Source of the DNA: an uncultured Novosphingobium sp.
Lineage (GTDB): Bacteria; Pseudomonadota; Alphaproteobacteria; Sphingomonadales; Sphingomonadaceae
NCBI GenBank assembly: GCA_946886365.1
Contig: CAMPIM010000004.1
Span: 1 to 53,496, forward strand
Length of the DNA stretch: 53,496 nucleotides
Reading direction: 5' to 3'
Both the position numbers and the translations under genes were made by a program. How positions within the stretch are numbered: the first letter of the stretch is position 1; each line of letters starts with the position of its first letter. Below, piece by piece: positions 1-38,847 of this stretch. The notes below the pieces were generated by a model, which worked only from the letters and a program-made list of their open reading frames with translations, did not search any database and was not told where the DNA came from.

Positions 1-3000
1 CCTGACCAACCGCCGTGATGCTGTAGGCGGGCAGCGTCGAAAAGCTGTTGCTTACACGCAATTTTCCGCCGTCGATCCGCAATGTGGCCGACCCGCCCGC
101 CGCATTGCCGCCCGAACCGCCTGCCCCACCGGCAAGCCCATCGATCCCGGCCGAACCCGCACCGCCGGTCGCATTGCCGCTCAACATCAGTTCCGCGCCA
201 GTGACCGCGCTCGCCCCGGCATCCACCGCGAACAGCGCAGTCCCGCCCTGTGCGTCACCGCCATCCGCGCCCGCAAGGCCCAGCCCGCTCTGGAACGCGC
301 CAACGCCGCCCGCGCCGCCAAACGCTTCGGCCAGCACGCCGATGTCGCCCGCGTCGAGAGAGGTTGATCCCCCGGTCAGCCCCAGCGTCGCCGTGCCGCC
401 AAAGGCATCGCCGCCCCGGCCCGCCGCTCCGTTGACCGCCGTGCCGCCAGCACCGCCAAAGCCGGAAGCCGACACGCGCAACTCGCCACTGACGCTGGTC
501 GCGCCAAAACCGATGTTGAGCGCCGCGATGCCGCCAGTGCCCGTGCCGCCCGCGCCGCTGCTGGCGCTATCCGCGCCCGCGCTGCCAAAGCCGTCGGCGC
601 TGACGATCAGGCTGACAAAGCTGGGATCGACATCGATCAGCATGTCCGCCGTGCCGCCCGTCCCGGCGCCACCCGCACCGCCCTGACCGGGTCCAAAGGC
701 ATAGATGGGCTTGTCGTTGATATCGAAACCGCTGATATAGCCGTTGATGCCCGCCAAGCCGCCCTGCCCTTCGGCCGACACGGTCAGTGCGCCGATCGCA
801 TGGCCTTCGCTCAGATAAGCGACACGCGCCGTCCCGCCCGTGCCGTTGCCCGCCGCGCCACCCGCCGCATCGCTGCTGTTATTGCCGCCAGCGCCCCCGA
901 CGCCCGCCGCCGACACAAGCAGCGACGGCGCTGTCAGCGCCCCGCTCGCCAGCGTCAATTCCGCCGTGCCGCCAGTGCCATTGCCGCCTGCGCCTGCTAT
1001 GTAAAAGCCGCCCGATCCATCGGAACCGGCCAGGCCGCCTGCGCCGCCATAGCCCAGCGCCCCGATGCTCAGGTCCTCAGTGACGATGATCTGGCCGGTG
1101 CCGCCAGCGCCCATGAGCAAGCGAGCGGTGCCGCCGAAACCCGCGCCGCCATCCGCGCCGTTGGGGCCGTTATAATTATAACCGGCAAACGGATCGCCGC
1201 CGCCGCCCACGCCATTTGCCGCGATATGGATGGCATCGGCGTTCAGCACGCCGCCGCGCGATTCCAATATGGCCGTGCCGCCGGTGCCCGATCCCGCCAG
1301 GCTCGATACGTCGTCAATGGCGTTCGCCGCTACCGCCTCGCCACCGACGCCCTCCGCGCCCAATTCCAGATTGGCGATGTTGGCGGTGCCGCCGGTCATC
1401 AGGAACTGGACCGATCCGCCCTGTCCGCTACCCGCCTGAAACGGCGTGACGCCGTCACCACATGACGGGCAGTTGACGGAGGAAGACCCGCCTCGGCCAT
1501 AAGCGCCCGCCGACAGGATCGTGGCATCGAAACTGCCTCCGGCGACGAGCAGGTTCACCGTGCCGCCGGCGCCATTCCCGCCATCACCTTCGTTGTAGGT
1601 CGTCCCTTCGGGATTGTAGGTAGAGACGCCGTCCGCATAGGCAAACAAGGTGCCAAAGCGCATCACGGCGCTGCCCGCCGCACCGGCCCTGCTCTCCACC
1701 GATATGCTGCCGCCCAGCCCGTCGCCACCTGTGCCAGCGACGCCGTCAAAAGATGCCGTTCCCCCGCCGACGCCTTTCGCGTGCAGATACAGACTGCCAT
1801 CCGCTACAAAGCTCGCGTCGGTCGTCTGGATCAGGATCGACCCGCCGGTGCCATTCGCCCCGTTCGCGCCATAGCCGCCCTCGCCATCGGCGGTGGCGTT
1901 GCAATAACCGACGCAATCGGCGGCGAAGCTGCCACGCAGTCCGTTCGCTGCACTGGCCGACAGGGTGATGCTGCCACCCGTGCCGGTCCCCGCCGCGCCG
2001 CTGGCATCGCCGCCGATCGCGTTGGCATATATGTCAAAACGGCCGGTCGTGATGCCGCCACCCGCCGCAGAGACGTCGATCGTCCCGCCTGTCGCGTTGC
2101 CGCCTGTGACGGGCGGGGCGGAATAGCTATATTCGACCCCGGCGGTCGCACTCAACGTCATGGTGCCAAAATCGATCGCCCCCGCCAGCGGCCCGCTCGG
2201 TCCTGCGGCGGTTCGTGCCGATACGGTGATGGCTCCGCCCGTCGCATTGCCTGCGCTGTCGCTGCCGACCCCGGCGGTCGCATTGGCATAAGCGGACAGG
2301 CTAAACGCGCTGATCGAACCGCCTGCCGCGATGACGTTGATCGCGCCACCCGTGGCGTCGCCTCCGGCCAGCACCGGAAAGTTAATGCCTCCCAAGCCAT
2401 AGGCGTTGGCATCCAGCTGCATCGCCCCGGTGACGTCGATCTGCCCATTGCCTGTTGGCAAGGCGCTGCCGCCAAAGGTCAGGACGTCGATCGTCCCGCC
2501 CGTGCCGCCAAGCCCGGCGGTCAGGTTCATGTCGCCGCCAACGCTCATGCTGCCGCCCTGATCGGCGCGCACGGTGATTGCCTCGCCCGCTTTCAGGTCC
2601 ATGTTGCCGGTTGCCGCTATGGCTCCCGCGGCTCCCGATTGTAGCGTAATCGCCCGCTCCGCCGTCAGGTTGAGGTTCGCGAAGTTCGCGGCAGCGCTTG
2701 GCTGAACGGCGATATTGCCGGTCACCTGCCCCGTCACATCCGGTTGCCAGGTCCCGCCGCCGATGCTGACGCTCGCCTCGCCCGCGCCCGTCATATTGCG
2801 CGCGCCGATTGCGTTGCCCGCTACATCATATCCGGCGGCCAGCACCACCGCGCTGCCCGACTGGACGGCGCTCACCGCCGACTGATAGCCGACATTGCCC
2901 GACAAGAGCATGGTCAACGCCTGATTCTTCGGCATCGCGACCATGAAGACATGCTGCGCATCGGTGACCGTCGCGCCCGGCCGTTCTGTGGTGCCCGTAT

Positions 3001-3793
3001 GCACCACGCCATTGGTATCGGTCGTGCCCGCGCTGATGCTGATGTCGAACAAGCCGTTATTTATTGTGATATCGACCGCTTCCGCGCCGACATAGGCTGC
3101 CCCGCCATTGACGCTGACCGTGCCGCCCTGCACCACGCGTGGCGCCACCAGCGCGACATAGCTGCCGCTCGACAGCGCGTTGATCTGCGCTGTCGATTTG
3201 ATCTCGACAGCAGATGTGCTGGCCGGATCGCCTCGGAAACGGATTACGTTAAAGTTGCCGTTGCCATCGCTCCCGTAGAGCCCGCCGGTCGTGTTGATGT
3301 CATTGCTGGTCAGCACCAGCGATCCGACATTGAACAAGGCATTAGGACCAGCCACGATCCCGCCCGGCGCGTAGAACCATATCTTGCCACCTGGGCTGCC
3401 GTTGATCTCGCTATTTACGGTTCCGTTAAGGGCAATGATGCTGGAAACGGACTGTCCGCTGCTATTGACGGGCAAGATGCGGTTCAACACCGTGAAATCG
3501 CTGACTCCTGACACTTCGTTTCTGAACGTCATTGTTTGGTTGGCCGGCAGGAAGTCGATCGTTCCCGCACCCGAAATGTCGGCAGGTTGCCAGTTGATCA
3601 CCGTCTCCGCATCCCGCACCACCACAGTACCTGGAATGCTGAAATCGGGATTCGATGATCCTTGTACCGTGGGCGTGCCCTGAAATCCTGTTTGCGCATA
3701 CGCAAAAGGTACACAGCATCCCGCCGCCAATGCCGTTACACTAACGTAACGACATAGCCTCGAAAAACGCGTTTTTCTCGCCAATTCCTTCAT
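1..3793 (-). CDS. TpsA-type filamentous haemagglutinin exoprotein (3' end beyond the window)
   Basis: Large secreted exoprotein of a two-partner secretion system. The frame is read from ATG at 3793; I checked it at several points down to base 2 and it keeps a sensible Gly/Ala/Ser-rich translation, so 1264 codons are visible and the C-terminus is missing. Residues 1-34 are a signal peptide (basic start, hydrophobic core, ending AYAQT). Residues about 35-250 match the TPS/haemagglutination-activity domain, with runs such as GGKIWFYAPGGIVAGPNALF followed by a GSLVLTSNDI stretch. The rest is repetitive and beta-helix-like, rich in GGAG, GGSGG and TGGAI units. It starts 4 bp after the stop of its transporter gene, with GGAGG of that gene's last codons as ribosome site. 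Substrate-partner pairing is inferred from adjacency. Whether it is an adhesin, toxin or biofilm matrix protein cannot be told without the C-terminus. Confidence 0.9.
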   Translation of the reverse strand, partial: MKELARKTRFSRLCRYVSVTALAAGCCVPFAYAQTGFQGTPTVQGSSNPDFSIPGTVVVRDAETVINWQPADISGAGTIDFLPANQTMTFRNEVSGVSDFTVLNRILPVNSSGQSVSSIIALNGTVNSEINGSPGGKIWFYAPGGIVAGPNALFNVGSLVLTSNDINTTGGLYGSDGNGNFNVIRFRGDPASTSAVEIKSTAQINALSSGSYVALVAPRVVQGGTVSVNGGAAYVGAEAVDITINNGLFDISISAGTTDTNGVVHTGTTERPGATVTDAQHVFMVAMPKNQALTMLLSGNVGYQSAVSAVQSGSAVVLAAGYDVAGNAIGARNMTGAGEASVSIGGGTWQPDVTGQVTGNIAVQPSAAANFANLNLTAERAITLQSGAAGAIAATGNMDLKAGEAITVRADQGGSMSVGGDMNLTAGLGGTGGTIDVLTFGGSALPTGNGQIDVTGAMQLDANAYGLGGINFPVLAGGDATGGAINVIAAGGSISAFSLSAYANATAGVGSDSAGNATGGAITVSARTAAGPSGPLAGAIDFGTMTLSATAGVEYSYSAPPVTGGNATGGTIDVSAAGGGITTGRFDIYANAIGGDASGAAGTGTGGSITLSASAANGLRGSFAADCVGYCNATADGEGGYGANGANGTGGSILIQTTDASFVADGSLYLHAKGVGGGTASFDGVAGTGGDGLGGSISVESRAGAAGSAVMRFGTLFAYADGVSTYNPEGTTYNEGDGGNGAGGTVNLLVAGGSFDATILSAGAYGRGGSSSVNCPSCGDGVTPFQAGSGQGGSVQFLMTGGTANIANLELGAEGVGGEAVAANAIDDVSSLAGSGTGGTAILESRGGVLNADAIHIAANGVGGGGDPFAGYNYNGPNGADGGAGFGGTARLLMGAGGTGQIIVTEDLSIGALGYGGAGGLAGSDGSGGFYIAGAGGNGTGGTAELTLASGALTAPSLLVSAAGVGGAGGNNSSDAAGGAAGNGTGGTARVAYLSEGHAIGALTVSAEGQGGLAGINGYISGFDINDKPIYAFGPGQGGAGGAGTGGTADMLIDVDPSFVSLIVSADGFGSAGADSASSGAGGTGTGGIAALNIGFGATSVSGELRVSASGFGGAGGTAVNGAAGRGGDAFGGTATLGLTGGSTSLDAGDIGVLAEAFGGAGGVGAFQSGLGLAGADGGDAQGGTALFAVDAGASAVTGAELMLSGNATGGAGSAGIDGLAGGAGGSGGNAAGGSATLRIDGGKLRVSNSFSTLPAYSITAVGQ

Positions 3794-3797
3794 GACT

Positions 3798-5585
3798 TCA
3801 CCGCCTCCACGGCAGAATTCGAGTGCTAACCGACAACAGCAACCGCGTGTCCCCCCGCTCCGTCTGCAACCCCGCGCGCCGCAGCGGCGTTGCCAGCGTC
3901 ACATCAATCCGCGCATGATTGGACCAGGTCGCTCGCACCCCGCCACCGGCCGAATAGAGCTTCTGCGGATCAAGCCCGGCAAAGACGCTGCTTTGGTGCC
4001 ACATCCACGCCGCGTCGAAGAAAAGGAAAGGCTGCACCGCGATCGCGCCCGGCCCCTTCGGCGTGATCCGCCCGTAGCGGACCTCCGCCCCGAACCCGAC
4101 GCCGCTGTCCCCCGTCAGCGTACCCGGATCATAGCCGCGCCCGACGGTATAATTGCCCGCGCTCATCTGTTCATAGGACAGCAGCGGGTCCGGGCTATAT
4201 TGCGCGCGTGGCGCCAGCGCGAAGGTCAGCTTCGGGGTGGGGCGATATTCCGCCTGCACCCCTGCCCTCACCAGAAAAGCGGAGGCGTCTCCGTCCAACT
4301 GCCCCGTCGGAATGCAGGCCGCCTGATTGCCGCAAGGCTCGCTCGCCCCCAGCCCGGCGAGCCCGTGGCGCAGCTCCAGATTACCGCCGATCCGCCATTT
4401 GGGTTCGATCGCCGAATAGCCGGTCGTACTCCCAAGGCTGTCGGCATCAATCGCCTCTCCCTCCAGCCGAAGAAACAGCACCCGCAACCGGTCGCGCGAC
4501 AAGGGCAGAGAGCCGATGCGAAGGTCCTGATCGACCACGTCCAGCCCGCCACTCGCCAACAGCGTGTGCACCTGCCGCCGCACCAGGGGATAGGACAGCG
4601 CGGCCGAAGCGATCATCGTTCTGGACGACAGGTCCAGCCCGTCGATATCGGGCTTGCTCCAGGCATAGGTGAAGTCGCCCGACAGCCGCAGCCCGTCGCT
4701 CCCCAATGCCATGCTGTGCCCGACCTGCAATACCGTCTGCTCGCTCGGTTGCACAGTGTTGAAGATGCTGAGGACCGTGCTGTCCCCCATCCCGGTCAGA
4801 TCGTTGAAGCGCACCCGCGCGAGGCCGCCGAAGCGGCCCACCGCATTGCTGCCAAGGTTCTGGACATTGACGTCCATCTCCACCCGGCGACGCACCACCT
4901 GCACTTCGCCGATGACCTCGCCGGGCGCCGTCCCGGCGGGCCGCAGCGCCAGCCGCACGTCATAGCCCGGCAAGTCGCGCGCCAGCAGCAGGTGCCGTTC
5001 CGCCTCATGCACATTGAACAGCGGTTGCCCCTTGAGCGCTTCCATATGCGCGGCAATCAGCCGTTCGCTCAGGCCCGCATCGCCCCGCACCTCGATAGCG
5101 ACCAGCCGCGCCATCAATATGTCGAAACGGACGGTGCCGCCTTTCTCGATCCGCTGCGGCGGGACCTGCACCGCCGCCAGATAGCCCAGCTGCCGAAGCG
5201 CCGTCGCGGCCCGGTCGCGGACTTCGCACAGGCTGGCGATCGGCACGTCGCGCCCCGCCAGATCGCCCCAGCTGTCCTTCAAGACGGCCGCGTCCACGCC
5301 GCGAAGACCGTCAAACTGCACATCGGCAAAGTTCACGGTGACATTGGCAAAGCGCGGATCGGCCAAGGGGCAAGGCGCCCGCTCCACGCCGCCTTCGACG
5401 GTCAAACGGCTTCCTTCGCCCGCGACGTCGGCGGCCTGCTGCCCCGGGGACAGTTCTTCTCGCGTCGGTGCGCGCGGCGCGACCTGCGCCATTGCGGGCA
5501 TTGGCGTCAAGGCAGTCAGTGCCAACGCCATCCGCCAATGCGCACGCCCCGTCATGCGGGATGTTGCTGCCCCCTGAAACCCCAT
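3798..5585 (-). CDS. TpsB outer-membrane transporter (ShlB/FhaC/HecB family)
   Basis: Outer-membrane POTRA plus beta-barrel protein that should export the downstream TpsA. A 595-residue product is read from ATG 5585, with GGGGGA upstream. The frame is open to 5624, and ATG 5555 also leaves a signal peptide (hydrophobic core ending PAMAQV). Residues about 70-220 contain POTRA-like sequence; the C-terminal 16-strand-barrel part follows. The family signature is visible near residues 480-495 as GRGYDPGTLTGDSG, matching the conserved VRGY-xxG-xLxGDSG motif of TpsB proteins, which lies in the L6 loop that enters the pore. Size fits the family (550-600 residues). The stop is 4 bp before tpsA, so the two are almost certainly co-translated. 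Family assignment is firm; the exact start is not. Confidence 0.92.
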   Translation of the reverse strand: MGFQGAATSRMTGRAHWRMALALTALTPMPAMAQVAPRAPTREELSPGQQAADVAGEGSRLTVEGGVERAPCPLADPRFANVTVNFADVQFDGLRGVDAAVLKDSWGDLAGRDVPIASLCEVRDRAATALRQLGYLAAVQVPPQRIEKGGTVRFDILMARLVAIEVRGDAGLSERLIAAHMEALKGQPLFNVHEAERHLLLARDLPGYDVRLALRPAGTAPGEVIGEVQVVRRRVEMDVNVQNLGSNAVGRFGGLARVRFNDLTGMGDSTVLSIFNTVQPSEQTVLQVGHSMALGSDGLRLSGDFTYAWSKPDIDGLDLSSRTMIASAALSYPLVRRQVHTLLASGGLDVVDQDLRIGSLPLSRDRLRVLFLRLEGEAIDADSLGSTTGYSAIEPKWRIGGNLELRHGLAGLGASEPCGNQAACIPTGQLDGDASAFLVRAGVQAEYRPTPKLTFALAPRAQYSPDPLLSYEQMSAGNYTVGRGYDPGTLTGDSGVGFGAEVRYGRITPKGPGAIAVQPFLFFDAAWMWHQSSVFAGLDPQKLYSAGGGVRATWSNHARIDVTLATPLRRAGLQTERGDTRLLLSVSTRILPWRR

Positions 5586-5698
5586 AGTCGTCTCATTCCC
5601 CCAAAGTGCGACGGGAGCGGCCATATGGCCTGTCGTCCCTGTCGCTGCGACCGTCCGGGGAAGGCGCTCTGCCCGCCGCCCGTCGGCTTATCAAGTCC

Positions 5699-6415
5699 CT
5701 AGCGTGCCGCCGTATCGATCAACAGATCAAGCTGCGCCTGGCATCCATGCGCGATCAGCGCCGATGCCGTGCTGTCGATCCCGCCAGCGGGCGCCCCCAG
5801 CAGTGCGAAGCGAATGTCGGTGGAACGCCCATCGGCATCCACCCGATAGGTTGCGCCATCCTTGACGGGGAGCGCTGCGGGCCATGCCGCCATTGCCTCT
5901 CCGGCGCTGAAGCTGGCCGTACCCTGCGCGCCGCCGCCGCTGATGCGGACGGTTGCCGATGTTTTGGCATCGGCACGCCACAGGCGCACGGCGGCGGGAT
6001 CGGACACGCATAGCGGCCCCGGCTGCGCAACATCGACCAGCCACAGATTGGGCCGCTTCGCTACCGCTGACGCATCCCCCAAGGCACCGCGCACGGCCCC
6101 GGTGCGTGCCCGGCGAACCCTTTTCGTATCAAGCAGCGCGGCCATGGTCACATTGGAAGCCGCCACTGTCGCCGCCGCCGTCACGTTGAAACGACCCGGC
6201 CCGCGCAGCGTCCGCGTGCCCTTCGCATCGAGCAACGTCACGACGTCCCCCGCCTTGAGCAGCAGTGCCCCGCCATCCGCGAGCTTCTTGCCCGGCGCAT
6301 AGCTGCCCGCCGAGGGTCCCGAAGACCGCACCACCAGGCTGTCGGCCCATGCAGGCGTCCCAGCGCCCAGGGCCACCGCCATCCCGAGCGCCACCGCCCC
6401 CTTAGCCCAGACCAT
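5699..6415 (-). CDS. Secreted FecR-domain protein
   Basis: A 238-residue exported protein. I start it at ATG 6415, which has GGAGG 6 bases upstream and overlaps the end of the cyclase gene by 14 bp; the longer open frame to 6556 lies inside that gene. Residues 1-24 are a signal peptide (MVWAKG then a hydrophobic stretch, AWADS). Residues about 25-110 look like a FecR domain, with the typical pattern of an added-up, AGDVVTLLDAKGTRTLRGPG-like beta segment. The rest has no recognised domain. FecR domains occur in anti-sigma/sensor proteins and in periplasmic proteins of TPS clusters; there is no cytoplasmic or membrane part here, so it is not a classical anti-sigma factor. Its role in this operon (sensing or scaffolding of the exoprotein) is inference. 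Confidence 0.75.
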   Translation of the reverse strand: MVWAKGAVALGMAVALGAGTPAWADSLVVRSSGPSAGSYAPGKKLADGGALLLKAGDVVTLLDAKGTRTLRGPGRFNVTAAATVAASNVTMAALLDTKRVRRARTGAVRGALGDASAVAKRPNLWLVDVAQPGPLCVSDPAAVRLWRADAKTSATVRISGGGAQGTASFSAGEAMAAWPAALPVKDGATYRVDADGRSTDIRFALLGAPAGGIDSTASALIAHGCQAQLDLLIDTAAR

Positions 6416-8444
6416 AAGTTCCTCCGTCCCCAATATATTCATAGCGATACACCAGATTGGCGAGAGCCGCATCATCCGGATGCTCCTGCGCCACTGCCTT
6501 GAGATCGGCCAGCCCTGTCGCCCGCTTCTCCGCATCTTCGGTGTCGAAGGCGGCAAGCGCGGCGCTCAGCCGAGCGCGATCGGCGGTCGCGAAATCCGGC
6601 GCTGGCTCAAACAGGTCAACCGGGGTCGACCGACCGCGAAGGCGGACCCGGCCCATCGGCCGCCACCAGTCGAGGCCCGACCGCTCCATTGCTTCTCGCG
6701 AAACCAGCACTGACGTTTCCAGCGCCTTGTTCGCCGCTTCAAGCCGCGCCGCCGTGTTCATGCTGTCGCCCAGAGCCGTATATTGGATGCGCCCTTCGCC
6801 GCCGAAATTCCCGACGATCGCATCACCATGATGCAGCCCCACTCGCGTTCGACCGATCGGCGGGACGCCGGGCGGCAGATCTTGCCGGAACGCCTCCCCC
6901 GCCTGCCACATGGCATAAGCCGCGAGTGCGGCCTTGCGCCCGTCATCCTCTCGCGCGATCGGCGCGCCCCAGAATGCGACGACCGCATCGCCGACGAATT
7001 TGTCGATGGTCCCGCCATGGGCGAGGACGACGTCACTCAACATGTCGAGGTAACGGTTCAGCAATTGCGCGACCATTTCCGGCGCGATCGCGTGGCTGAG
7101 TTTGGTGAAGCCCTCCAGATCGGTGAAGAGGGTGAAGATAGGCCGCTTTTCGCCGTGCAGCGCCAGCTTCTCCGGTTCCGCCAGAATCTGCGCGGCGATG
7201 TCGCGGGGCAGATATTTGCCCAGCGCCGCCTGCGCGAAGCGGCGCTGTTGCGAATTCACTGCCCTTGCTGCGGCGCTGACGGCCGCAAAGGCGACGACCC
7301 AGCCCAGCGCCCACCCGGCGGCGGGCAGCCCCTTGGTATCCCAGCCGCTCGCCTGCAACCAAAGCGGCAAGCCCGCTATGGCCACGGCTTGAAGTCCAAG
7401 TGCGGGCACCAGCCAGAACCAACGCAAATCCGCGAGGCTGGTCAGCGCTGCGGCCAGTATGATCAGCGCCGCCGCGATCCACAATGCCCAACCTGGCACC
7501 GCAGGCAACAGAGCGCGATCGAGCAGTTGCGCAAGCATCGTGGCATGCACTTCCAGACCGATCATCGTGGACTTCGCCTGCCGTCCGGACAGCGGTGTTT
7601 CGAACTGATCGATATCGACGATGTCACCGCCGATCAGCACATGTCGGCCCCGCACCATCGGCGCCAGAGCAGCGGGCATGGAGGGATCGGCGAGCAAGTC
7701 GATCTGAAGGCTCGGGATTACGGGTTCTTCCGATCCGTCCGCCTGCGCGTTCGGCATGCGGAAACGGATAGCGCCGCCATAATGCGCAAAGGGTGCCGAC
7801 GGGTGCATCGCCAGCGACAGCAGCGGTGGCTGGCCCGGCACTGGCTTTGGCCAGCTGCGCGCGACATTGTCGGAATCCGTTTCCAACCGGATGCTCGCGG
7901 GCCTGACCCTGGAGGTCCGCGCCTCAGCGATGAACCGGTCCAGATATTGCTGCTGTTCGAAGATGATCTGTTCGCGATTGTCGCCGAAATTGGCATAGCC
8001 GAGCCAGACCGGCGTGCGCATCGCATGCAGCGCCGACAATAGCTGCGCGTCTTCATCCTGCGGCTGATCGAACAATATATCGATGCCGATGGAGGTTGCG
8101 CCCATCGCGTCCAAATTGCGCAGCGCCCGCGCCAAAAGACCGCGGTCCAGTGGTGAGCGTTTGCGCGTGGCGATCAATGTCTGATCGTCATAGACGACCA
8201 TCAGGATGCGCTTGTCCTGCTCGACACGGGGCGCGAAAGTGGCCGCGCGCCAATCATACAGGCCACGCTCCGCGTCGGCGGTCGGTATCTCCCGCTCTGA
8301 ACCGGCGGCGCCCAATGGATTGGTCCAGTTCCACCCCGCGACGAACAACGCCAGCAGCAATAACAGCGCCGTCCCGGCAAGCCGCCATCGCCCCGCGTCC
8401 TGCATGACGCGCGCGCCCCGGCGCAACAGGCCTTGCGCCGCCAT
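6402..8444 (-). CDS. CHASE2-domain membrane adenylate cyclase
   Basis: A 680-residue class III nucleotide cyclase. Residues 23-41 are the first membrane segment; 45-310 form an extracytoplasmic CHASE2 sensor domain (GIDILFDQP near 120 and RGRHVLIGGD near 266 are typical); about 317-395 give three further membrane segments; 433-610 are the catalytic domain. Metal-binding aspartates are seen at D442 (FTDLEGF) and D486 (GDAVVAFWGAP). K482 and T557 (QYTALGD) are the adenine-specifying Lys/Thr pair of class IIIb adenylate cyclases, and N564/R568 the transition-state pair (MNTAARLE). All catalytic residues are present, so cAMP synthesis is predicted. It begins 5 bp after the CHAT gene stop. The CHASE2 ligand is unknown; coupling cAMP to exoprotein secretion is inference. 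Confidence 0.9.
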   Translation of the reverse strand: MAAQGLLRRGARVMQDAGRWRLAGTALLLLLALFVAGWNWTNPLGAAGSEREIPTADAERGLYDWRAATFAPRVEQDKRILMVVYDDQTLIATRKRSPLDRGLLARALRNLDAMGATSIGIDILFDQPQDEDAQLLSALHAMRTPVWLGYANFGDNREQIIFEQQQYLDRFIAEARTSRVRPASIRLETDSDNVARSWPKPVPGQPPLLSLAMHPSAPFAHYGGAIRFRMPNAQADGSEEPVIPSLQIDLLADPSMPAALAPMVRGRHVLIGGDIVDIDQFETPLSGRQAKSTMIGLEVHATMLAQLLDRALLPAVPGWALWIAAALIILAAALTSLADLRWFWLVPALGLQAVAIAGLPLWLQASGWDTKGLPAAGWALGWVVAFAAVSAAARAVNSQQRRFAQAALGKYLPRDIAAQILAEPEKLALHGEKRPIFTLFTDLEGFTKLSHAIAPEMVAQLLNRYLDMLSDVVLAHGGTIDKFVGDAVVAFWGAPIAREDDGRKAALAAYAMWQAGEAFRQDLPPGVPPIGRTRVGLHHGDAIVGNFGGEGRIQYTALGDSMNTAARLEAANKALETSVLVSREAMERSGLDWWRPMGRVRLRGRSTPVDLFEPAPDFATADRARLSAALAAFDTEDAEKRATGLADLKAVAQEHPDDAALANLVYRYEYIGDGGTYGLG

Positions 8445-8449
8445 CGGGA

Positions 8450-11400
8450 TCAGCGCCGGGCGATCAACGGACGGGCGCCATCGCCTATGACGGCAAAGCC
8501 GGACCAGTAGAAGGGATGCGAAGTGTCCGCTTCGTCCATCAGCTGAATCTGGGCCAGACGCAGCGCCTCAGCCACTGGTTGGTCGGGAGCCGCCGCGAAC
8601 AGCCCGGCCATCAGCCTTTCGGTCGCGCGATATTCTTCGGGGGCAGGCCAATGGCTCGCGATGATGGAACGGCCACCCGCACCGATGAATGCGCGCACCA
8701 GTCCGTCGAGCGCTCCGCCGCTGCCGGACAGGCCCGCCGCGCGGGTCGTTTCGGCGCCCGCCGCCCCTGCCGTGTCGCAGGCCGACAATATGACAAGGTC
8801 CGCATCCAGCCGTAGGTCGAAGATTTCGCCAAATTGCAGCAGGCCGTCCGACCCGGTCTTTGACGCGAAACTGGTCAGCAAGGCAGGACGGGCCGGGCAT
8901 CCCGCGCGCGGCGGCGTGACAAGGCCGTGGGTGGCGAAATGCAGGATACGGAAATGGTTGAGGTCATTGCGCGCCTTGACCGCCTCATCGGTGAAGGCCG
9001 CGCCGGTTACGAGTTCGCTGCCCGATGTTCCAACCGCCTGCGCCGCCTGACGCAACTCGTCTGCCGGAATGGGGTGGTTCCATTGGGCAGGCGACCAGCT
9101 GCAATCGTCAGCCTGACCGGGCAGCGCGCCACGCGTCAGCGCGGCCAACCTTGGCCCGGCGATCGGCGCATTGTCGCCAAAGCCGATATAGCTTTGCGGT
9201 GCCCCCGATGGCGGGGTCAGCCGGGCGTCGCGGAAAGCGCGGGCCGACAAGGCGGTGCTCACCGCATGATCGCGGCCGAGCCAATCGACGCCACGAAAGT
9301 CGAACTCGTCGCCGCCCTTCTCCAGCCGCGCGGCATAGGCATCGACGCCCGGCTGACTGGCGACCAGCAGGTTGACCGGCAGTTGCAGCATCGCGCCGTC
9401 CGGCTCGAAGATCAGATGGCGCACGCTCTTCAGCCGCTCATCGATCGGGCCGAACAGGTCGAGATAGAGGCTGCGCGCCACCGGCAGGTCGAGCGCATAG
9501 GTGGATTGCACACCCGCGACATCGGTCGAAATCGTATCGCGCAACGCCGCGACCTTGCGCCCCACCTCGCCAGCGCTGACAGGCAAGCGGAAGCCTGTTG
9601 CCCCCTGCCCGTCTATCCACAGGGCGTAGAGGGCATCGCCAAGCTGCGCGAGCTTGTAATAGCCCTCCCCCGCCTTCAACGTTCCGCGCATTTCGCCAAG
9701 GGTCAGCGCCTGCGGGCTGACGGCGCGATATTGGGGATAGGCGGCCAGTGCCGTCAGCGTCGCGGCCTGATCGGTCGCCAGCACGTCGATCTCTGCCTGC
9801 CGCCGCGCGATCTCATCCTGGGTCGCGCTGTCGCCCTTGCCCGCTTCACGCAATTGGGCGAGGGCGATGCGGCCACGCTCTATATCGCGAGAGAGAGATG
9901 TCGACTGGCGGAAAAGACGCGCGGCCTCTCCGTCGCCCGCCGACAATTCGCGGCTCAGCAATTCCAGCGTCTCGGCCGCACCGGGACGCACCAGCAATTG
10001 CGACGCTTCGAACAGGTCCGCCGCAAGTTCGGGGCGCCGGGGCATTTCGGACGTGAGCAGCGTGAAATAGGGCTGCAACTGGTTCGCCATCGCCGTCAGC
10101 GTGCCGCGATTGGCCACGGTGGACGTCATGATCGCGCGATAGGTCTTCAACGCCTCATCAGTCCGCCCGCGCCGCACGAGGAACGCGCCCAAACGAGCAC
10201 GCGCGCCGTTGAGGGCCATCGTTTCGGGATATTGCGCGGCGATCAGGCTGACGGCCTGATTGAGCCGCGCCTCGGCACCGCCATAATCCTGCTCCGCTTC
10301 GTGCGTCAGCGCGATCTCGCCCAGCAGTTGCGCGCGCAGCCGGGTGATCGAGGTCACACGGCCATCGCGCACCCGCTGCACGTCGTTGAGCGCCCGGGTG
10401 AGCACGGTGCGCGCCTCCCGAGGCTTGCCCGACAGGCGCAAGATGGTGCCGCGCAATTGCTGTGCTTGCGCATCGAGTATGGCCGCCCGCTCACGCGGCG
10501 TAAGCGCCGTATCCTGTCGTACACCCAGTGCCCGCGTTTCAGGCGCGCCACTGCTCAATTCCGCCGCCACGTCGCTCGGCAGGGTCACTGCGCCATCCGT
10601 GCCAGCGGCAAGCGCCGTCCCGCCTTCCACTGGCTGGTCGAGCAAGGCGAGCGCGCCTTGAAGATCGCGCTGATTGAGGTGATGCACCGCGTCGAAATTA
10701 CGGCGCAGGCGGAGCTGGACAGCGTCGGCCGTCGGCACGGCGCGAGCCTGGGCAAAAGCGGCATCGGCCTGATCGAACAGGCCAAGGTTGGACAATTGCA
10801 AACCGTGGTTCACGAGATATTCGTGTCGTCGGTTGGCCCGTTCCGCGGGGCTTAAGGCTTGCGTATCGGGATTACGGGCAAGGCGATCGGTCAGGCTGTC
10901 GAAAAATTCCGCAGCCTCCGCATAGTTGCCGGAAGCGTTGCGACGATAGCCCTCCGCCATCACGGTCTGCGGATCGAGGGTCGCCGCCTGCATCCGGGCA
11001 AAGGCCGCCGCATTGCTGCCACCGGTCGTAACGATGTCTATCTTGCCCGGCACGGTGCGGCCCAACATGACGGTGCGCAGGCCAAGGTCCAAGACCGTGT
11101 CATAGGGCGCGAAGCCCTGCGTCACATAAAGCGTCTTGCCCCGTTCGACGGACAGGATGCGGTAAGCGCCCGCTTCGCTGGAGCAATTGCGGACTGTTAC
11201 CGCACCAATATCGGGCAAGGTCATGCCGCCCGGCGCGGCGCAGTTCGCGGAAGATCGGCGCGATGCCGACAGTCTTTCAAGCAGCGCCGCTTCGCTATCG
11301 GCCCCGCTCCGCCGGAGCGCATAGATACGGCCTACCGGACGCGCGGCGTCACGACATACAACGGCCCAGGCGCGATCGAACATGGTGCGGCTTGCCGGGT

Positions 11401-11566
11401 CGCCGTTGACGCTCTGCGCCTGACAGAGCGCTCCGCCGCCACTGCCGATGCGAAAGCTGTCCTGCAACAGCGGCCGGTCAAGCTCCGGTTGCGCGGCCAG
11501 CGCAGATGACAGGCCCAAAGCGCCCAGCCCGGCCAAGATCCGACAGAAATTCCCTATAGCGCTCAA
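8450..11566 (-). CDS. Secreted TPR-CHAT domain protein (caspase-like protease)
   Basis: A 1038-residue protein and first gene of the operon. TTG at 11566 is chosen because GGGGGG lies 7 bases upstream and it yields a clean signal peptide (LGLSSALAAQ). The middle part (about 190-500) is helical with TPR-like repeats; about 550-620 looks coiled; the C-terminal third (about 700-1035) is a CHAT domain. The caspase-type dyad is present: His880 in HFATHGL and Cys930 in LSACDTAGA, followed by the conserved GLVRAFIGAGGRSIIASHW segment. CHAT proteins belong to the caspase/separase clan and many are peptidases. The signal peptide predicts action in the periplasm or outside, where a target could be the exoprotein secreted by the same operon; the target is inference. 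Confidence 0.88.
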   Translation of the reverse strand: MSAIGNFCRILAGLGALGLSSALAAQPELDRPLLQDSFRIGSGGGALCQAQSVNGDPASRTMFDRAWAVVCRDAARPVGRIYALRRSGADSEAALLERLSASRRSSANCAAPGGMTLPDIGAVTVRNCSSEAGAYRILSVERGKTLYVTQGFAPYDTVLDLGLRTVMLGRTVPGKIDIVTTGGSNAAAFARMQAATLDPQTVMAEGYRRNASGNYAEAAEFFDSLTDRLARNPDTQALSPAERANRRHEYLVNHGLQLSNLGLFDQADAAFAQARAVPTADAVQLRLRRNFDAVHHLNQRDLQGALALLDQPVEGGTALAAGTDGAVTLPSDVAAELSSGAPETRALGVRQDTALTPRERAAILDAQAQQLRGTILRLSGKPREARTVLTRALNDVQRVRDGRVTSITRLRAQLLGEIALTHEAEQDYGGAEARLNQAVSLIAAQYPETMALNGARARLGAFLVRRGRTDEALKTYRAIMTSTVANRGTLTAMANQLQPYFTLLTSEMPRRPELAADLFEASQLLVRPGAAETLELLSRELSAGDGEAARLFRQSTSLSRDIERGRIALAQLREAGKGDSATQDEIARRQAEIDVLATDQAATLTALAAYPQYRAVSPQALTLGEMRGTLKAGEGYYKLAQLGDALYALWIDGQGATGFRLPVSAGEVGRKVAALRDTISTDVAGVQSTYALDLPVARSLYLDLFGPIDERLKSVRHLIFEPDGAMLQLPVNLLVASQPGVDAYAARLEKGGDEFDFRGVDWLGRDHAVSTALSARAFRDARLTPPSGAPQSYIGFGDNAPIAGPRLAALTRGALPGQADDCSWSPAQWNHPIPADELRQAAQAVGTSGSELVTGAAFTDEAVKARNDLNHFRILHFATHGLVTPPRAGCPARPALLTSFASKTGSDGLLQFGEIFDLRLDADLVILSACDTAGAAGAETTRAAGLSGSGGALDGLVRAFIGAGGRSIIASHWPAPEEYRATERLMAGLFAAAPDQPVAEALRLAQIQLMDEADTSHPFYWSGFAVIGDGARPLIARR

Positions 11567-11944
11567 GGCTATCCCCCCAGCCTCGCCGGATCTGTCCGTG
11601 CAAGCCCCCTGTCGCGCGATCCAGCGCGCTCTTCATAGCGCCGCCCCAGCTTGCCGCAAGGTAAAAGAGGGCTGTCGCGCCGATCCGATGCGGCGATTAA
11701 ACCAGCATTTCGTGGGAGGTGAGGCTTCGGGTTGCTCATCCTCCCGTGCGAGAAACTGATGCGGACGAAACTGGTGCGTAAGGACGACGGTCGTCCGGAC
11801 TATTCAGTTTGACTTCATTACGACGGTGAGTTTGCCCTCGCCAGTCCGCCAAATCCGATAAATGAAATCTAGATTTGACCTATCACATTGCATATATATG
11901 TTCAAAGAATGTAACTTGATGTTCTATACATCATTTGAGGACCA
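11567..11944. other. Intergenic divergent promoter region
   Basis: This 378-bp gap separates the leftward CHAT/TPS operon from the rightward XRE-SulP operon, so it must hold both promoters. I see no credible gene in it; the open frame over 11448-11759 is a shadow. A short inverted repeat GGACGA-CGG-TCGTCC lies at 11782-11796. The last 80 bp are AT-rich compared with the surroundings and contain TTGACC at 11875, several TATATA-like hexamers and the operator-like dyad annotated separately. Confidence 0.5.
11917..11933 (+). promoter_or_regulatory. Operator-like inverted repeat before the XRE gene
   Basis: The perfect repeat TGATGT-TCTAT-ACATCA ends 12 bp before the XRE start codon and covers a -10-like TATACA. 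This is where an autorepressor would bind, so it may be the site of the XRE protein itself. The repeat is seen; its function is inferred. Confidence 0.45.
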
Positions 11945-12262
11945 ATGATCACCTCTCAGCAAATGCGGGCCGCGCGAGCATTGCTCGGTATCGATCAGCG
12001 CCAACTCGCCGCTTTGGCGAGCGTGTCGCTGCCGACGATCCAGCGCATGGAGGCCTCCGATGGGCAGGTGCGAAGCGTCGTTGATACATTGGTGAAGGTG
12101 ATCAGCGCGCTCGAAGCGGCAGGGATCGAGATTATCGGCGAGAATGCCCCGAGTAGTGGCGCGGGACGTGGTGTCCGCCTGAGGGAAACAGCGTCCGGCC
12201 AGCAACCCAGGCGCGTGCCCTCTGTGCTGTTCGATCAGACGGCCCAAGACGATGGATCGTAA
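11945..12262 (+). CDS. XRE-family HTH transcriptional regulator
   Basis: A 105-residue DNA-binding protein. Residues 5-62 are a Cro/CI-type helix-turn-helix: an ARALLGIDQRQLAALASVSL segment, then PTIQRME as recognition helix. The C-terminal 40 residues are low-complexity and unassigned. GAGG precedes the ATG by 4 bases. It overlaps the SulP gene by 11 bp, so both are co-transcribed and probably translationally coupled, suggesting that it controls anion uptake and its own expression. Such small solitary XRE proteins can also be antitoxin-like, but no toxin gene is present next to it. Confidence 0.85.
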   Translation: MITSQQMRAARALLGIDQRQLAALASVSLPTIQRMEASDGQVRSVVDTLVKVISALEAAGIEIIGENAPSSGAGRGVRLRETASGQQPRRVPSVLFDQTAQDDGS

Positions 12263-14334: not shown

Positions 14335-16896
14335 TCAATCCGCGCGCGCGGCGCGACCTGCGCTCCATCCCATACGCCCCTTGAGCAGTTCGCACAGAAG
14401 GAGAACGCAGGCGGGCATGAGGATCAGGAGGGCTAAATCCGTCAGCTTCAACGGAGCAAAGTCCAGAACCCGGCGCAGAGGTTCCAGCATGAATATCAGC
14501 GCGCAAGCCAGCAGGACGAGCAGCGCGACATAGCGCAGCGAAACATTGTGCCGCCAGACGGCGCTCGTCAGGGATGTACTGAAGGACCGATTGACCAGCA
14601 CCAACGCCATGATGGACGTCACCAGCCCGAAGAAAAGGAGCGCCCGCACGCGGGCCGGGTCATAGCCCCAGACGGTTGCGCAGATGTGGAGAGCGAGGAG
14701 CAGCGCGAAGGCAATTCCGCCATAAGCGATGCTCGGCAGGACCAGACGTCCGGAAAAGAGGCGTTCATCCGGATTGCGCGGCGGCCTGCGCATGATACGG
14801 TTTTCTTCCCGTTCGGCTTCGAAGACGAGCGCGCAAACCGGATCGATGATCATTTCGAGAAGGGCTATCTGGATTGGCCCCAGCACCAGCGGAAGGTCCA
14901 GCAGAAGTGGGGAAACGGCAAGCCCTGCGATCGGCACATGGACCGCGAAGATGAAACCTATGGCTTTGCGGATATTGTCATAGATGCGGCGGCCGAGCCG
15001 AATGGCGACGACGATGGCGCCGAAATCATCCTCAACCAGGACGATGGCCGCCGCCTCCCGCGCTACGTCCGTGCCACGCTTGCCCATGGCGATGCCGATA
15101 TGGGCGGCCTTGAGCGCCGGTGCGTCGTTGACGCCGTCGCCGGTCATAGCGACCACTTCTCCCGCCGATTTGAGCGCCGAGACAATTCGCAACTTTTGTT
15201 CCGGCATGGTGCGCGCGAAAATAGCCACGTCTTTCACCCGCGCGCAAAGCTCCGCGTCGGACATTGCCGCGACGTCGCCGCCAGTCATGAGCGCGCCTGC
15301 GCCGATTCCCGCCTGTAGCGCAATAGCCTGCGCGGTGGCGGGGTAGTCGCCGGTTATCATGACCACCCGGATCCCGGCCGTGTGGCATTGGGCCACGGCT
15401 TCCGGAACCCCCGCCCGCAGCGGATCGGACAAGCCGATCAGCCCGAGAAGACTGAACGCGTGCGCTTCATGCCCTATCCCGGCATTTGGCTCCGCTATAT
15501 TGGCAGAAGCCACGCCCAGAACGCGCATCCCGCGAGCCGCCATGACCTGAACCGCCTGCTCAAGGGCCGAACGAGTGCCTTCGTCCAGCCGACAAAGGCG
15601 CGCGATCGCTTCCGGTGCGCCCTTCGCGGCAACAAGCAATGGTTCCCCGGCGGTCGCGGGCCGCCAGACATTGGACATTGCGAGGAGGTCCGGCTGAAGA
15701 CCGTTGGTGTGGACCAAGAGCCAGTCTTCGCGAGCAGGAACCCGGACATCCCGAGCAGCGGTGTGGAATGCCACCTCCATCGGATCGACCGGCACGGGAG
15801 CGCTCGCCAGGGCAGCCGCGCTGATCAGGTCATGGAATTGCGCTTGCGGTAATCCCTCGCCAAGAACCGCCGCCTCACCTGACGGCAGCCACAATTCAGT
15901 GACGGTCATCCGGTTCTGAGTCAGTGTCCCGGTCTTGTCCGTGCACAGGACCGTGGCCGCACCCAGAGCCTCTATCGCGGAGGCCCGTCGGGTGAGCACG
16001 CCGACCTGTGCAATACGCCATGCGCCCATGGCCAGGAATATGGTGAGGACCACCGGAAACTCTTCAGGCAGCAACGACATCGCCGTCGCGATCCCGGCCA
16101 GCAGCGCGGCCATCCAGTCGCCCCTCAGCCATCCGTACAGCAGGACCACCAGCAGTGCGACGGCGACACCGCCGACCGCGCACAGGCTCACCATTCGGGT
16201 GGTTTCCTTGTGAAGATGCGGCGCTTCTGTCTCCAATGTTTCGAGAAACCGCCCGATCTGGCCAATGCGGCTGTGCGTGCCGGTAGCCGTTACCCGTGCG
16301 ATGCCCCCGCCATGCGTCACGATCGCTCCAGAAAAGAGATGAGGGGTATCGTCGCCCCCCGGCTCCGCGCGTTCAGCATCCCCTGAGGCCCCGCGCCGCT
16401 TGCGCACCGGCACAGCCTCGCCGGTCAGCAGCGACTCGTCTGCTTCAAGCTCCCGTGCCTCGACCACCAGTGCGTCCGCTGCGATCCGGTCCCCCGCTTC
16501 CAACACCAGAATGTCGCCATTTACGACCTCACGACCAGGGATGCGCAGGGTTTCCCCGTCACGTACAACCAGGGCGCGCGGTGCCGAGAGGTCTCGCAGT
16601 GCCTCAAGCGTGCGTTCCGTGCGCGCCTCCTGCACGATCGTGATGATGATCGACAAGCCAGCAAAGCCGAGCAGGATCAGCGCCTCAGTGCGGTCGCCGA
16701 GCAGCAGATAGACAACGCCCGCCGCGAGCAGCATGGCGAACATCGGCTCCCGCAGCACCTCCATCGCGATGCGCAGGGGCGTCCGTCGGTTTGGCCGGGG
16801 CAATTCGTTGGGGCCATCCTCCGCCAGCCGCTCGCGCGCCTGTGACGTGGAGAGGCCGACAAGACCAAGATGCCCACCTACCATCTCTATTCTCAT
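14335..16896 (-). CDS. P2-type cation-translocating ATPase (calcium-pump-like)
   Basis: An 853-residue P-type ATPase of the inner membrane. The N-terminal cation-ATPase domain (about 10-70) is followed by an actuator domain with the LLTGEAVP motif (156-163), the phosphorylated Asp320 in CTDKTGTLTQ, and the TGDGVNDAPALK hinge. The M4 motif reads LLPEEFP (275-281) instead of the PEGLP of SERCA pumps. A C-terminal set of helices carries DPVCALVFEAEREENRIM, as in Ca2+/Mn2+ or Na+-type P2 pumps. GGGAG directly precedes ATG 16896; ATG 16884 is also possible. It is convergent with the PhnA gene. Ion specificity cannot be fixed by eye; Ca2+ or Mn2+ is a guess from the family. Confidence 0.9.
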   Translation of the reverse strand: MRIEMVGGHLGLVGLSTSQARERLAEDGPNELPRPNRRTPLRIAMEVLREPMFAMLLAAGVVYLLLGDRTEALILLGFAGLSIIITIVQEARTERTLEALRDLSAPRALVVRDGETLRIPGREVVNGDILVLEAGDRIAADALVVEARELEADESLLTGEAVPVRKRRGASGDAERAEPGGDDTPHLFSGAIVTHGGGIARVTATGTHSRIGQIGRFLETLETEAPHLHKETTRMVSLCAVGGVAVALLVVLLYGWLRGDWMAALLAGIATAMSLLPEEFPVVLTIFLAMGAWRIAQVGVLTRRASAIEALGAATVLCTDKTGTLTQNRMTVTELWLPSGEAAVLGEGLPQAQFHDLISAAALASAPVPVDPMEVAFHTAARDVRVPAREDWLLVHTNGLQPDLLAMSNVWRPATAGEPLLVAAKGAPEAIARLCRLDEGTRSALEQAVQVMAARGMRVLGVASANIAEPNAGIGHEAHAFSLLGLIGLSDPLRAGVPEAVAQCHTAGIRVVMITGDYPATAQAIALQAGIGAGALMTGGDVAAMSDAELCARVKDVAIFARTMPEQKLRIVSALKSAGEVVAMTGDGVNDAPALKAAHIGIAMGKRGTDVAREAAAIVLVEDDFGAIVVAIRLGRRIYDNIRKAIGFIFAVHVPIAGLAVSPLLLDLPLVLGPIQIALLEMIIDPVCALVFEAEREENRIMRRPPRNPDERLFSGRLVLPSIAYGGIAFALLLALHICATVWGYDPARVRALLFFGLVTSIMALVLVNRSFSTSLTSAVWRHNVSLRYVALLVLLACALIFMLEPLRRVLDFAPLKLTDLALLILMPACVLLLCELLKGRMGWSAGRAARAD

Positions 16897-17008: not shown

Positions 17009-19504
<2,496 letters not shown>

Positions 19505-19598
19505 GGGGGCCGCCTCATCCGTATAACTACGGACTGCCTCTCTCCTTCTTTGGCCTATTGAGGTATGATCGGGAAAAAGATGAGCGGGAGAGGTTCGC

Positions 19599-21188: not shown

Positions 21189-21202
21189 AGATGGAGGTTC
21201 CG

Positions 21203-21874: not shown

Positions 21875-21917
21875 CATTCCCGATGGGCGAACGGCAACGA
21901 CATGAGGTGGGCAGGCC

Positions 21918-38777: not shown

Positions 38778-38847
38778 TAACGGATTAGAGCCGGGATCAG
38801 CATGGGTCATGTCATCCTGCTCGATCCGCTGGTTTTTTGGAGCTGCG

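What the first reader, a model, noticed from the sequence alone, without database searches (positions are those of the whole stretch)
1..11566. CHAT protease + CHASE2 cyclase + FecR + two-partner secretion in one operon
Five genes read leftward with gaps of 4-5 bp, a 14-bp overlap, or short spacers: a secreted TPR-CHAT protein with an intact His880/Cys930 dyad, a complete class IIIb adenylate cyclase with an extracytoplasmic CHASE2 sensor, a secreted FecR-domain protein, TpsB and TpsA. Known TPS loci usually hold only tpsBA and sometimes a modifying enzyme. A caspase-clan protease exported with the exoprotein and a cAMP sensor could make a self-contained surface system: exoprotein maturation, release or signal-triggered cleavage. 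Gene content is seen; the joint function is inference.
Basis: partly seen in the sequence, partly recalled or inferred. Interest (0 to 1): 0.72.

Follow-up and report, generated by a model that had tools for sequence, protein, structure and literature searches.

The report
Protease–cAMP–exoprotein operon tied to cytochromes
A bacterial operon that exports a giant surface protein together with a caspase-like enzyme and a cAMP-making sensor turns out to be part of a larger gene set, largely inherited together in one bacterial family, that also codes for haem proteins likely to carry electrons through the cell envelope.

Summary
CHAT protein, CHASE2 adenylate cyclase, small secreted protein, TpsB and TpsA are read leftward (gaps 5, -14, 74 and 4 bp) and the His880/Cys930 dyad is intact. 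The third gene fails as FecR. All five stay in order in 22 of 22 relatives with a full-length CHAT match at 59% identity or more. But the operon is not self-contained. In 19 of 20 relatives whose downstream was fetched, a four-gene multihaem-cytochrome/barrel module follows on the same strand; a cyclic-nucleotide-binding oxidoreductase was seen beyond it in 14. In 298 family genomes CHAT (108), cyclase (112) and decahaem cytochrome (119) occur together in 101 and are all absent in 171; the cyclase is beside CHAT in 58 of the 101, with the cytochrome instead in 32. My reading: an envelope system in which exported CHAT works on the TPS exoprotein, the cyclase senses the envelope, and cAMP gates an electron path. 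The linkage is strongly supported, though not tree-corrected; electron transfer, the cAMP gate and cleavage of TpsA are inference.

The parts
8450..11566 (-). CHAT protein, 1038 aa from TTG: hydrophobic N-terminus (signal-peptide-like), weak TPR matches, C-terminal CHAT caspase-fold domain
   Evidence: PF12770 E 3.8e-49 at residues 695-1029; hydrophobic segment 7-25. The near-identical gene in Sphingobium sp. TomMM15 is annotated 10 codons shorter
8927..8929 (-). catalytic His880 codon of CHAT
   Evidence: in HFATHG; invariant in 57 of 57; H in 88 of 89 held stretches, the other does not reach it
8777..8779 (-). catalytic Cys930 codon of CHAT
   Evidence: in LSACDTA; invariant in 57 of 57; C in 88 of 89 held stretches, the other does not reach it
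6402..8444 (-). CHASE2 adenylate cyclase, 680 aa (CHASE2 residues 57-332, cyclase 436-587; one N-terminal and three later hydrophobic segments)
   Evidence: PF05226 E 2.8e-28, PF00211 E 5.2e-13; catalytic residues; segments
   Evidence: a homologue follows the cyclase in 46 of 46 held loci over 8 kb with a cyclase match of >=45% identity and >=450 aa; alignment A3; no Pfam FecR match, profile comparison negative
3798..5624 (-). TpsB (ShlB/FhaC-type outer-membrane transporter), 608 aa, or 595 aa from a later start as annotated in TomMM15
   Evidence: PF03865 E 3.1e-15; POTRA_2 22.5 bits, cut-off 24; TomMM15 start
2..3793 (-). TpsA exoprotein, first 1264 aa (cut by the window edge; 2152 aa in the TomMM15 gene)
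   Evidence: weak TPS-domain matches NF012204 and TIGR01901; TomMM15 relative with no CXXCH and 467 Gly
11567..11944 (-). upstream spacer of the operon, divergent to the helix-turn-helix gene at 11945; no CRP-type site found here
   Evidence: none in the window; CRP-like sites with 2 or fewer mismatches in 4 of 26 upstream stretches, all from more distant relatives

Best explanation
The five genes are the secretion and sensing part of a three-module envelope system. SHOWN by gene content and linkage: (1) CHAT-TpsB-TpsA form one unit; (2) CHASE2 cyclase plus the small two-cysteine protein form a second; (3) a tetrahaem cytochrome, an HbpS-repeat lipoprotein-like protein, a barrel-like protein and a decahaem LVIVD cytochrome form a third, in most Sphingobium-type loci read with a nearby operon for an FAD/4Fe-4S oxidoreductase carrying two cyclic-nucleotide-binding domains, a b561-like membrane protein, an FHA-decahaem cytochrome and a cyclic-nucleotide phosphodiesterase homologue. 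The markers of the three modules (CHAT, cyclase, decahaem cytochrome) tend to be inherited as a set even when unlinked. INFERRED: TpsB exports TpsA to the surface; CHAT, exported to the periplasm, cuts or primes TpsA or a partner; the CHASE2 domain with its small partner reads the state of the envelope (export, cleavage or redox load) and raises cAMP; cAMP binds the oxidoreductase and gates electron flow from NAD(P)H through the multihaem proteins to or from the cell surface; the phosphodiesterase limits or insulates the signal.
For: Order kept in 22 of 22 relatives with a full-length CHAT match of 59% or more. Cytochrome module downstream on the same strand in 19 of 20 fetched relatives (of those 22); the oxidoreductase seen in 14 of 20, on the facing strand in 12. 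In 298 family genomes CHAT 108, cyclase 112, decahaem cytochrome 119, all three 101, none 171; CHAT/cyclase 108 of 108 against 4 of 190. Genus level: CHAT in 39, cytochrome in 43, both in 36 of 96 genera, p 6e-16. Layouts of the 101: cyclase next to CHAT in 58, upstream of the cytochrome and not next to CHAT in 32, no such neighbourhood in 10 (draft contig breaks count as apart). CHAT with a TpsA or TpsB match in 18 of 20 genomes where CHAT and cytochrome are over 40 kb apart. Four CXXCH motifs in the c554-like protein, ten in the LVIVD cytochrome, ten in the FHA cytochrome. Glu and Arg of both nucleotide-binding cassettes kept in 31 of 31 oxidoreductase homologues that align over 80%.
Against: No CRP-type site upstream of the operon in the window or its near relatives; 4 of 26 upstream stretches, from distant relatives, have one with 2 or fewer mismatches (no shuffled control). 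In 19 loci read outside the family the cytochrome module shows no CHAT, TPS, cyclase or phosphodiesterase hit in the fetched stretch, so it can exist without them. In the family, 15 genomes have the cytochrome with neither CHAT nor cyclase over my cut-offs, 3 have it with the cyclase only, 7 have CHAT and cyclase without the cytochrome, 1 has the cyclase alone. The barrel is weakly supported (Alginate_exp in 8 of 40 members, best E 0.005). The phosphodiesterase scores nearest to SpdA, below the cut-offs; S. meliloti SpdA acts on 2',3'- not 3',5'-cAMP. No structure could be predicted. No substrate of CHAT is known. The co-occurrence test is not corrected on a tree and has no unrelated-gene control. 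The cytochrome module is not inside the window and the window's own genome is not held.
Confidence: 0.5

Rival explanations
1. Self-contained TPS maturation system: CHAT is a dedicated periplasmic or surface protease that matures or releases TpsA, the cyclase senses the result, and the downstream cytochromes are unrelated neighbours.
For: CHAT lies beside TPS genes also where no cytochrome gene is seen in the stretch fetched: Caballeronia CHAT-ShlB-FHA, Sphingomonas parapaucimobilis TpsB-TpsA-CHAT, Trichormus FHA-CHAT, Niveispirillum with a long exoprotein-like ORF (by eye), CHAT, small protein and cyclase. CHAT has TpsA or TpsB beside it in 18 of 20 genomes where the cytochrome is far off.
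Against: CHAT and the decahaem cytochrome occur in the same 101 of 298 genomes, over 40 kb apart on one contig in 26 and on different contigs in 37, which neighbourhood alone does not explain; the cyclase is upstream of the cytochrome and not next to CHAT in 32.
Confidence: 0.2
2. Cell-surface signalling like the NsrA-CyaK path of Sinorhizobium: TpsB/TpsA is the outer-membrane receptor, the small secreted protein relays to the CHASE2 cyclase, cAMP drives a regulon; the CHAT protein is a TPR scaffold or releases the relay, and the cytochromes are one target.
For: S. meliloti CHASE2 cyclases are triggered through the outer-membrane barrel protein NsrA (PMC7529298, PMC13001267, passages). Its cyaD1 locus holds clr, smc02178 and spdA (PMC4222275, passages); the Clr targets include smc02177, by its number a neighbour, with a FecR domain, and SMb20495, a large TPR protein with a signal peptide (PMC5498481). 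Second copies in G081 and G059 have CHAT-cyclase-small protein-phosphodiesterase in a row.
Against: The small protein is not a FecR domain by the tests made; no CRP-type site at the operon in the window; none of the five genes was compared with NsrA, and SMb20495 was not tested for a CHAT domain.
Confidence: 0.2
3. Mere joint inheritance: a large block lost and gained together in the family, with no joint mechanism.
For: In G017 only the CHAT start and the decahaem cytochrome end were found, 9-21 bp apart by two searches, as if the whole block had been lost at once; twelve Sphingobium records carry the CHAT gene on plasmid records of 0.88-1.28 Mb.
Against: The set persists when not linked: 32 genomes with the cyclase by the cytochrome and not next to CHAT, 10 with no two of them in the tested neighbourhoods (some of the 10 by contig breaks).
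Confidence: 0.1

Closest known systems
Two-partner secretion systems (FHA/FhaC, HxuA/HxuB type)
   Same: ShlB-type transporter gene directly followed by a large repetitive exoprotein gene
   Different: An exported CHAT protein, a CHASE2 cyclase and a small secreted protein precede tpsBA in one operon; a 2017 review states that maturation protease genes appear not to be part of TPS operons (PMC5422565, passages)
CHASE2 adenylate cyclases CyaD1/CyaD2/CyaK of Sinorhizobium meliloti with NsrA, Clr and SpdA
   Same: CHASE2 sensor with an adenylate cyclase, extracytoplasmic partner gene, SpdA-like phosphodiesterase nearby, an outer-membrane barrel in the pathway
   Different: No CHAT, TPS or multihaem protein is named in the passages read; here the small partner is not a FecR domain and the outer-membrane part is TpsB/TpsA. 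A secreted TPR protein (SMb20495) among the Clr targets was not compared
CHAT (PF12770) TPR proteins, such as Csx29 of type III-E CRISPR or HetF (recalled)
   Same: TPR region plus caspase-fold domain with a His/Cys dyad
   Different: Signal-peptide-like N-terminus and encoded with a secretion system; no solved relative found by sequence at E<=0.1
Porin-cytochrome conduits for extracellular electron transfer (MtrCAB, Pcc, Ext; recalled)
   Same: Multihaem c-type cytochromes with a barrel-like protein and inner-membrane redox proteins in one cluster
   Different: Decahaem cytochrome carries LVIVD repeats; HbpS-repeat protein; oxidoreductase with two cyclic-nucleotide-binding domains; coupled in this family to CHAT-TPS and a CHASE2 cyclase
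Burkholderia BiofilmReg operon (PMC5192318)
   Same: CHASE2 sensor with an extracytoplasmic partner protein in one operon
   Different: Histidine kinase instead of cyclase, LysM-FecR partner, no CHAT or hemagglutinin mentioned (passages and term counts)

Membership tests
Two-partner secretion (type Vb) | TpsB of the ShlB/FhaC family with POTRA domains | tested here: met
   PF03865 56.9 bits, cut-off 22.7; POTRA_2 22.5 bits, just under its 24
Two-partner secretion (type Vb) | TpsA with signal peptide and N-terminal TPS domain | tested here: inconclusive
   NF012204 28.1 bits (cut-off 60) and TIGR01901 16.7 (29.1) within residues 112-182; N-terminal 300 residues conserved beside TpsB in relatives
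CHAT cysteine peptidase family | PF12770 domain with His/Cys dyad | tested here: met
   168 bits, cut-off 24; H880/C930 in 57 of 57
CHAT cysteine peptidase family | proteolytic activity | not testable with these tools
Class III adenylate cyclase with CHASE2 | CHASE2 and cyclase domains, two metal Asp, Lys/Thr base-selecting pair, Asn/Arg | tested here: met
   (residue roles recalled)
FecR domain protein | PF04773 match | tested here: not met
   0 of 9 homologues; hhalign probability 0.9%; PF04773 finds 4 other genes but not this one in G001
Porin-cytochrome conduit | multihaem c-type cytochromes | tested here: met
   4, 10 and 10 CXXCH motifs
Porin-cytochrome conduit | outer-membrane barrel that holds a cytochrome | tested here: inconclusive
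   612-aa protein: Alginate_exp in 8 of 40 members, best E 0.005; ends in Tyr; no PDB relative by sequence
Porin-cytochrome conduit | electron transfer across the outer membrane | not testable with these tools
   needs experiment
S. meliloti CyaD/CyaK-NsrA-Clr pathway | homologue of NsrA, or a Clr/Crp site at the target genes | tested here: inconclusive
   no CRP-type site upstream of CHAT in the window, CRP-like sites in 4 of 26 upstream stretches; the Clr motif itself and NsrA were not tested

The most novel reading that the evidence does not exclude
Sphingomonads have a protease-licensed, cAMP-gated electron conduit: an exported caspase-fold enzyme acts on a TPS exoprotein at the surface, a CHASE2 cyclase senses that event, and cAMP bound by a flavin/iron-sulfur oxidoreductase opens electron flow through a barrel and decahaem cytochromes in bacteria regarded as aerobes.
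Probability: 0.3. Interest if true: 0.88.

Novelty: new variant of a known kind. Interest (0 to 1): 0.72.

Why it matters
It gives a concrete, testable partner set for three poorly understood things at once: what CHAT proteins outside CRISPR do, what CHASE2 sensors read, and what a common multihaem cytochrome family does. For the decahaem LVIVD protein 7997 of the 7999 scored candidates matched, a capped count; the held library has no paper with both 'LVIVD' and 'multiheme' and two with 'LVIVD' and 'cytochrome', on other subjects by title and abstract. If right, it links protein secretion, second-messenger signalling and envelope electron transfer in one inherited set, in a family with pollutant degraders and plant-associated strains (recalled).

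Tried and rejected
Rejected: the FecR label for the third gene. Rejected: 'TpsA ends the operon', from the TomMM15 record and relatives. Not supported: generic CHAT proteins being usual TPS partners. Only four loci from same-class genomes were read (4 of the 20 planned); no neighbour was recognised by eye as a TPS gene, and they were not scanned with family models. In L199 the CHAT match lies inside one very long ORF that was not studied further. Led nowhere: CRP-type sites and inverted pairs upstream of CHAT (CRP-like sites in 4 of 26 stretches, all distant relatives; start positions of several stretches were extrapolated from alignments); sequence relatives of CHAT, the barrel and the decahaem protein in the PDB; NCBIfam names for the downstream proteins, no usable one over its cut-off for the cytochromes, the barrel or the phosphodiesterase; a first CRP-independent look at S. 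meliloti cyclase regions, which carry no annotation in the collection. Paper searches for CHAT with CHASE2, FecR, TPS or multihaem cytochromes listed no paper whose title or abstract start joins these parts; some searches listed 20 of 88, 20 of 114 and 20 of 32.
Full report
Observation. Spacing is 5 bp, a 14-bp overlap, 74 bp and 4 bp (coordinates). Pfam gives CHAT, CHASE2, the cyclase domain and ShlB clearly, POTRA_2 just under its cut-off, nothing for TpsA and nothing for the third gene. NCBIfam adds two TPS-type matches to TpsA below their cut-offs. His880 and Cys930 are invariant in 57 of 57 aligned proteins and present in 88 of 89 stretches in held loci; the other, a fragment, does not reach them. 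The cyclase keeps Asp442, Lys482 and Asp486 in 70 of 70 stretches, and Thr556, Asn563 and Arg567 in the 48 that reach them. In both counts some genomes are represented by two loci.

Third gene. The FecR label does not stand. None of nine homologues matches PF04773 (reported up to E 5, though the filters drop most matches above 0.1). A profile of 13 homologues against 15 real FecR domains gives 0.9% probability. PF04773 finds four genes in G001 and not this one. It is a small family with a signal-peptide-like start (by eye) and two invariant cysteines, and a homologue follows the cyclase in 46 of 46 held loci with a good cyclase match.

Where the window comes from. It is Sphingobium-like (inferred): the CHAT protein is 98.2% identical in plasmid pTomMM15a (951 kb) of Sphingobium sp. 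TomMM15, and the 12 plasmid records over 80% identity are all Sphingobium, 0.88-1.28 Mb. The own assembly is not held; G001 is the nearest.

Conservation of the order. In 150 relatives 65 have some CHAT match; 22 have a full-length one at 59-96% identity, and in 22 of 22 the order CHAT-cyclase-small protein-TpsB-TpsA is kept; in one (G050, L047) TpsB is split by about 5.3 kb. The second copies in G081 and G059 (44% identity) have CHAT-cyclase-small protein-phosphodiesterase and no TpsB match in the stretch read. Of eight named loci, five have the contig lengths of genomes already counted; the other three are Sphingomonas sp. LaA6.9 with all five genes, a Croceibacterium MAG with the first four up to the contig end, and Qipengyuania marisflavi with CHAT-TpsB-TpsA and no cyclase there.

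The operon is followed by more. In pTomMM15a TpsA (2152 aa) is followed on the same strand by a c554-like tetrahaem cytochrome, a lipoprotein-like protein with three HbpS-like stretches, a 612-aa barrel-like protein and a 1322-aa decahaem cytochrome with LVIVD repeats. Facing it is an operon for an 841-aa FAD/NAD oxidoreductase with two cyclic-nucleotide-binding stretches and 4Fe-4S domains, a 70-aa ORF, a b561-like protein, an FHA-decahaem membrane protein and a phosphodiesterase annotated CpdA. In 20 of the 22 relatives the downstream stretch was fetched: the four-gene cytochrome module follows on the same strand in 19 (not in G007), in G021, G043 and G071 after a gap of about 3.3-3.6 kb. 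The oxidoreductase was seen in 14 of 20, on the facing strand in 12 and on the same strand in G012 and G050; some stretches end before its usual place. The window does not contain this part; its presence in the window's own genome is inferred.

Co-occurrence. Among 150 relatives the decahaem cytochrome is full-length in 21, all among the 22 with full-length CHAT. In 298 genomes of the family (96 genera), long CHAT matches occur in 108, the cytochrome in 119 and both in 101. In 38 of these they are within 40 kb, always on one strand, the cytochrome downstream in 37. Adding the cyclase (112 genomes): all three in 101, none in 171; CHAT and cyclase go together in 108 of 108 against 4 of 190 (Fisher p 2e-77); cyclase and cytochrome in 104 (p 4e-53). 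The exceptions: 15 genomes with the cytochrome only, 7 with CHAT and cyclase only, 3 with cyclase and cytochrome, 1 with the cyclase only. At genus level CHAT is in 39, the cytochrome in 43, both in 36 of 96, p 6e-16. These tests are not corrected on a tree, have no unrelated-gene control, and the first-look filters may miss weak genes. Dropped before the count: CHAT matches under 393 bits and cyclase matches under 560 bits. Three of the cytochrome-only genomes (G546, G582, G755) have weak CHAT and cyclase matches 15-20 kb from the cytochrome on the facing strand.

Modules re-sort. Of the 101 genomes with all three, the cyclase is next to CHAT in 58 (36 of these also have the cytochrome within 40 kb downstream of CHAT), within 22 kb upstream of the cytochrome and not next to CHAT in 32, neither in 10, and one is another layout; contig breaks count as apart. 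In 20 genomes where CHAT and cytochrome are over 40 kb apart, CHAT has a TpsA or TpsB match in 18 (12 with TpsB; 6 with TpsA matches only, which are weak and repetitive; none in G625 and G747). The cyclase with its small protein is before the cytochrome module in 14, after CHAT in 4 and in neither stretch in 2. In G017 only the start of CHAT and the end of the decahaem cytochrome were found, side by side.

Wider view. The decahaem family is large (7997 of 7999 scored candidates match, capped). In 385 class-level genomes 35 match, 27 over nearly full length. Of the 24 of these outside the family 19 were read: the module shows no CHAT, TPS, cyclase or phosphodiesterase hit in the fetched stretches, which are short in some; the oxidoreductase was seen in 16. 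So the cytochrome module seems older or more general, and the CHAT-TPS and cyclase parts an addition in this family, or lost elsewhere. CHAT beside TPS with no cytochrome in the stretch seen occurs in Caballeronia, Sphingomonas parapaucimobilis, Trichormus, and with small protein and cyclase in Niveispirillum. Of the other annotated plasmid loci read, Agrobacterium vitis, Pseudosulfitobacter, Sulfitobacter and Nostoc have CHAT without an annotated TPS gene next to it.

How it may work. The strongest statement is functional coupling. Its direction is inference: CHAT acts on the TPS exoprotein, the cyclase reads the envelope, cAMP acts on the oxidoreductase. Support for the last step: Glu and Arg of both nucleotide-binding cassettes are kept in 31 of 31 homologues (cassette roles recalled). 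There is no CRP-type site before the operon in the window or near relatives, but four of 26 upstream stretches, from L033, L034, L035 and L038, have one with 2 or fewer mismatches, so transcriptional use of cAMP is open in them. The phosphodiesterase scores nearest to SpdA, under the cut-offs; S. meliloti SpdA lies at the cyaD1 locus and acts on 2',3'-cAMP (PMC4222275, passages), so it may insulate rather than end the signal. S. meliloti CHASE2 cyclases respond to a plant protein through the barrel protein NsrA (PMC7529298 and PMC13001267, passages), which keeps the receptor reading alive.

Novelty. None of the listed papers joins CHAT with CHASE2, TPS or multihaem cytochromes by title or abstract start (lists capped at 20); the library is open-access only. 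The parts are known kinds; the inherited assembly appears new. Papers were seen as search listings and passages (PMC5192318, PMC5498481, PMC13001267, PMC7529298, PMC5422565, PMC4222275), a term count with no hits (PMC11475568), and one named section (PMC5498481 section 16).

Noticed in passing
outside the window, L061 30306-33670 and L065 2076-15457 (pTomMM15a): Multihaem cytochrome, barrel-like and oxidoreductase genes with a phosphodiesterase follow or face the operon; central to the report.
   Followed up: yes
L024 1150-1821 (G017): Start of CHAT and end of the decahaem cytochrome lie 9-21 bp apart, as if the whole block between had been lost in one event.
   Followed up: partly
L047 9380-14700 (G050): TpsB gene split by about 5.3 kb with resolvase-like and transposase-like ORFs (by eye).
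   Followed up: partly
window 19599-24286 (+): Beta-CASP metallo-hydrolase (best models Cas14 and aCPSF1, below cut-off), thymidine/AMP-phosphorylase-type enzyme and PRPP synthetase close together; in pTomMM15a a flavodoxin-family gene lies between the first two. Looks like a nucleotide or ribose-phosphate salvage set of archaeal flavour.
   Followed up: no
window 14335-16896 (-), 17009-19777 (-), 38809-41454 (+): Two P-type ATPases (one over the cut-off of the Mg type) and a PEP synthase in the same window.
   Followed up: no
L195 (Caballeronia sp. M1242) and L062 (Sphingomonas parapaucimobilis): CHAT-ShlB-FHA genes sit inside a type VI secretion cluster in L195; in L062 TPS-CHAT genes lie two genes before type VI genes.
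   Followed up: no
L056, L057 (second copies in G081, G059): CHAT-cyclase-small protein followed directly by the phosphodiesterase, with a long repetitive ORF upstream.
   Followed up: partly
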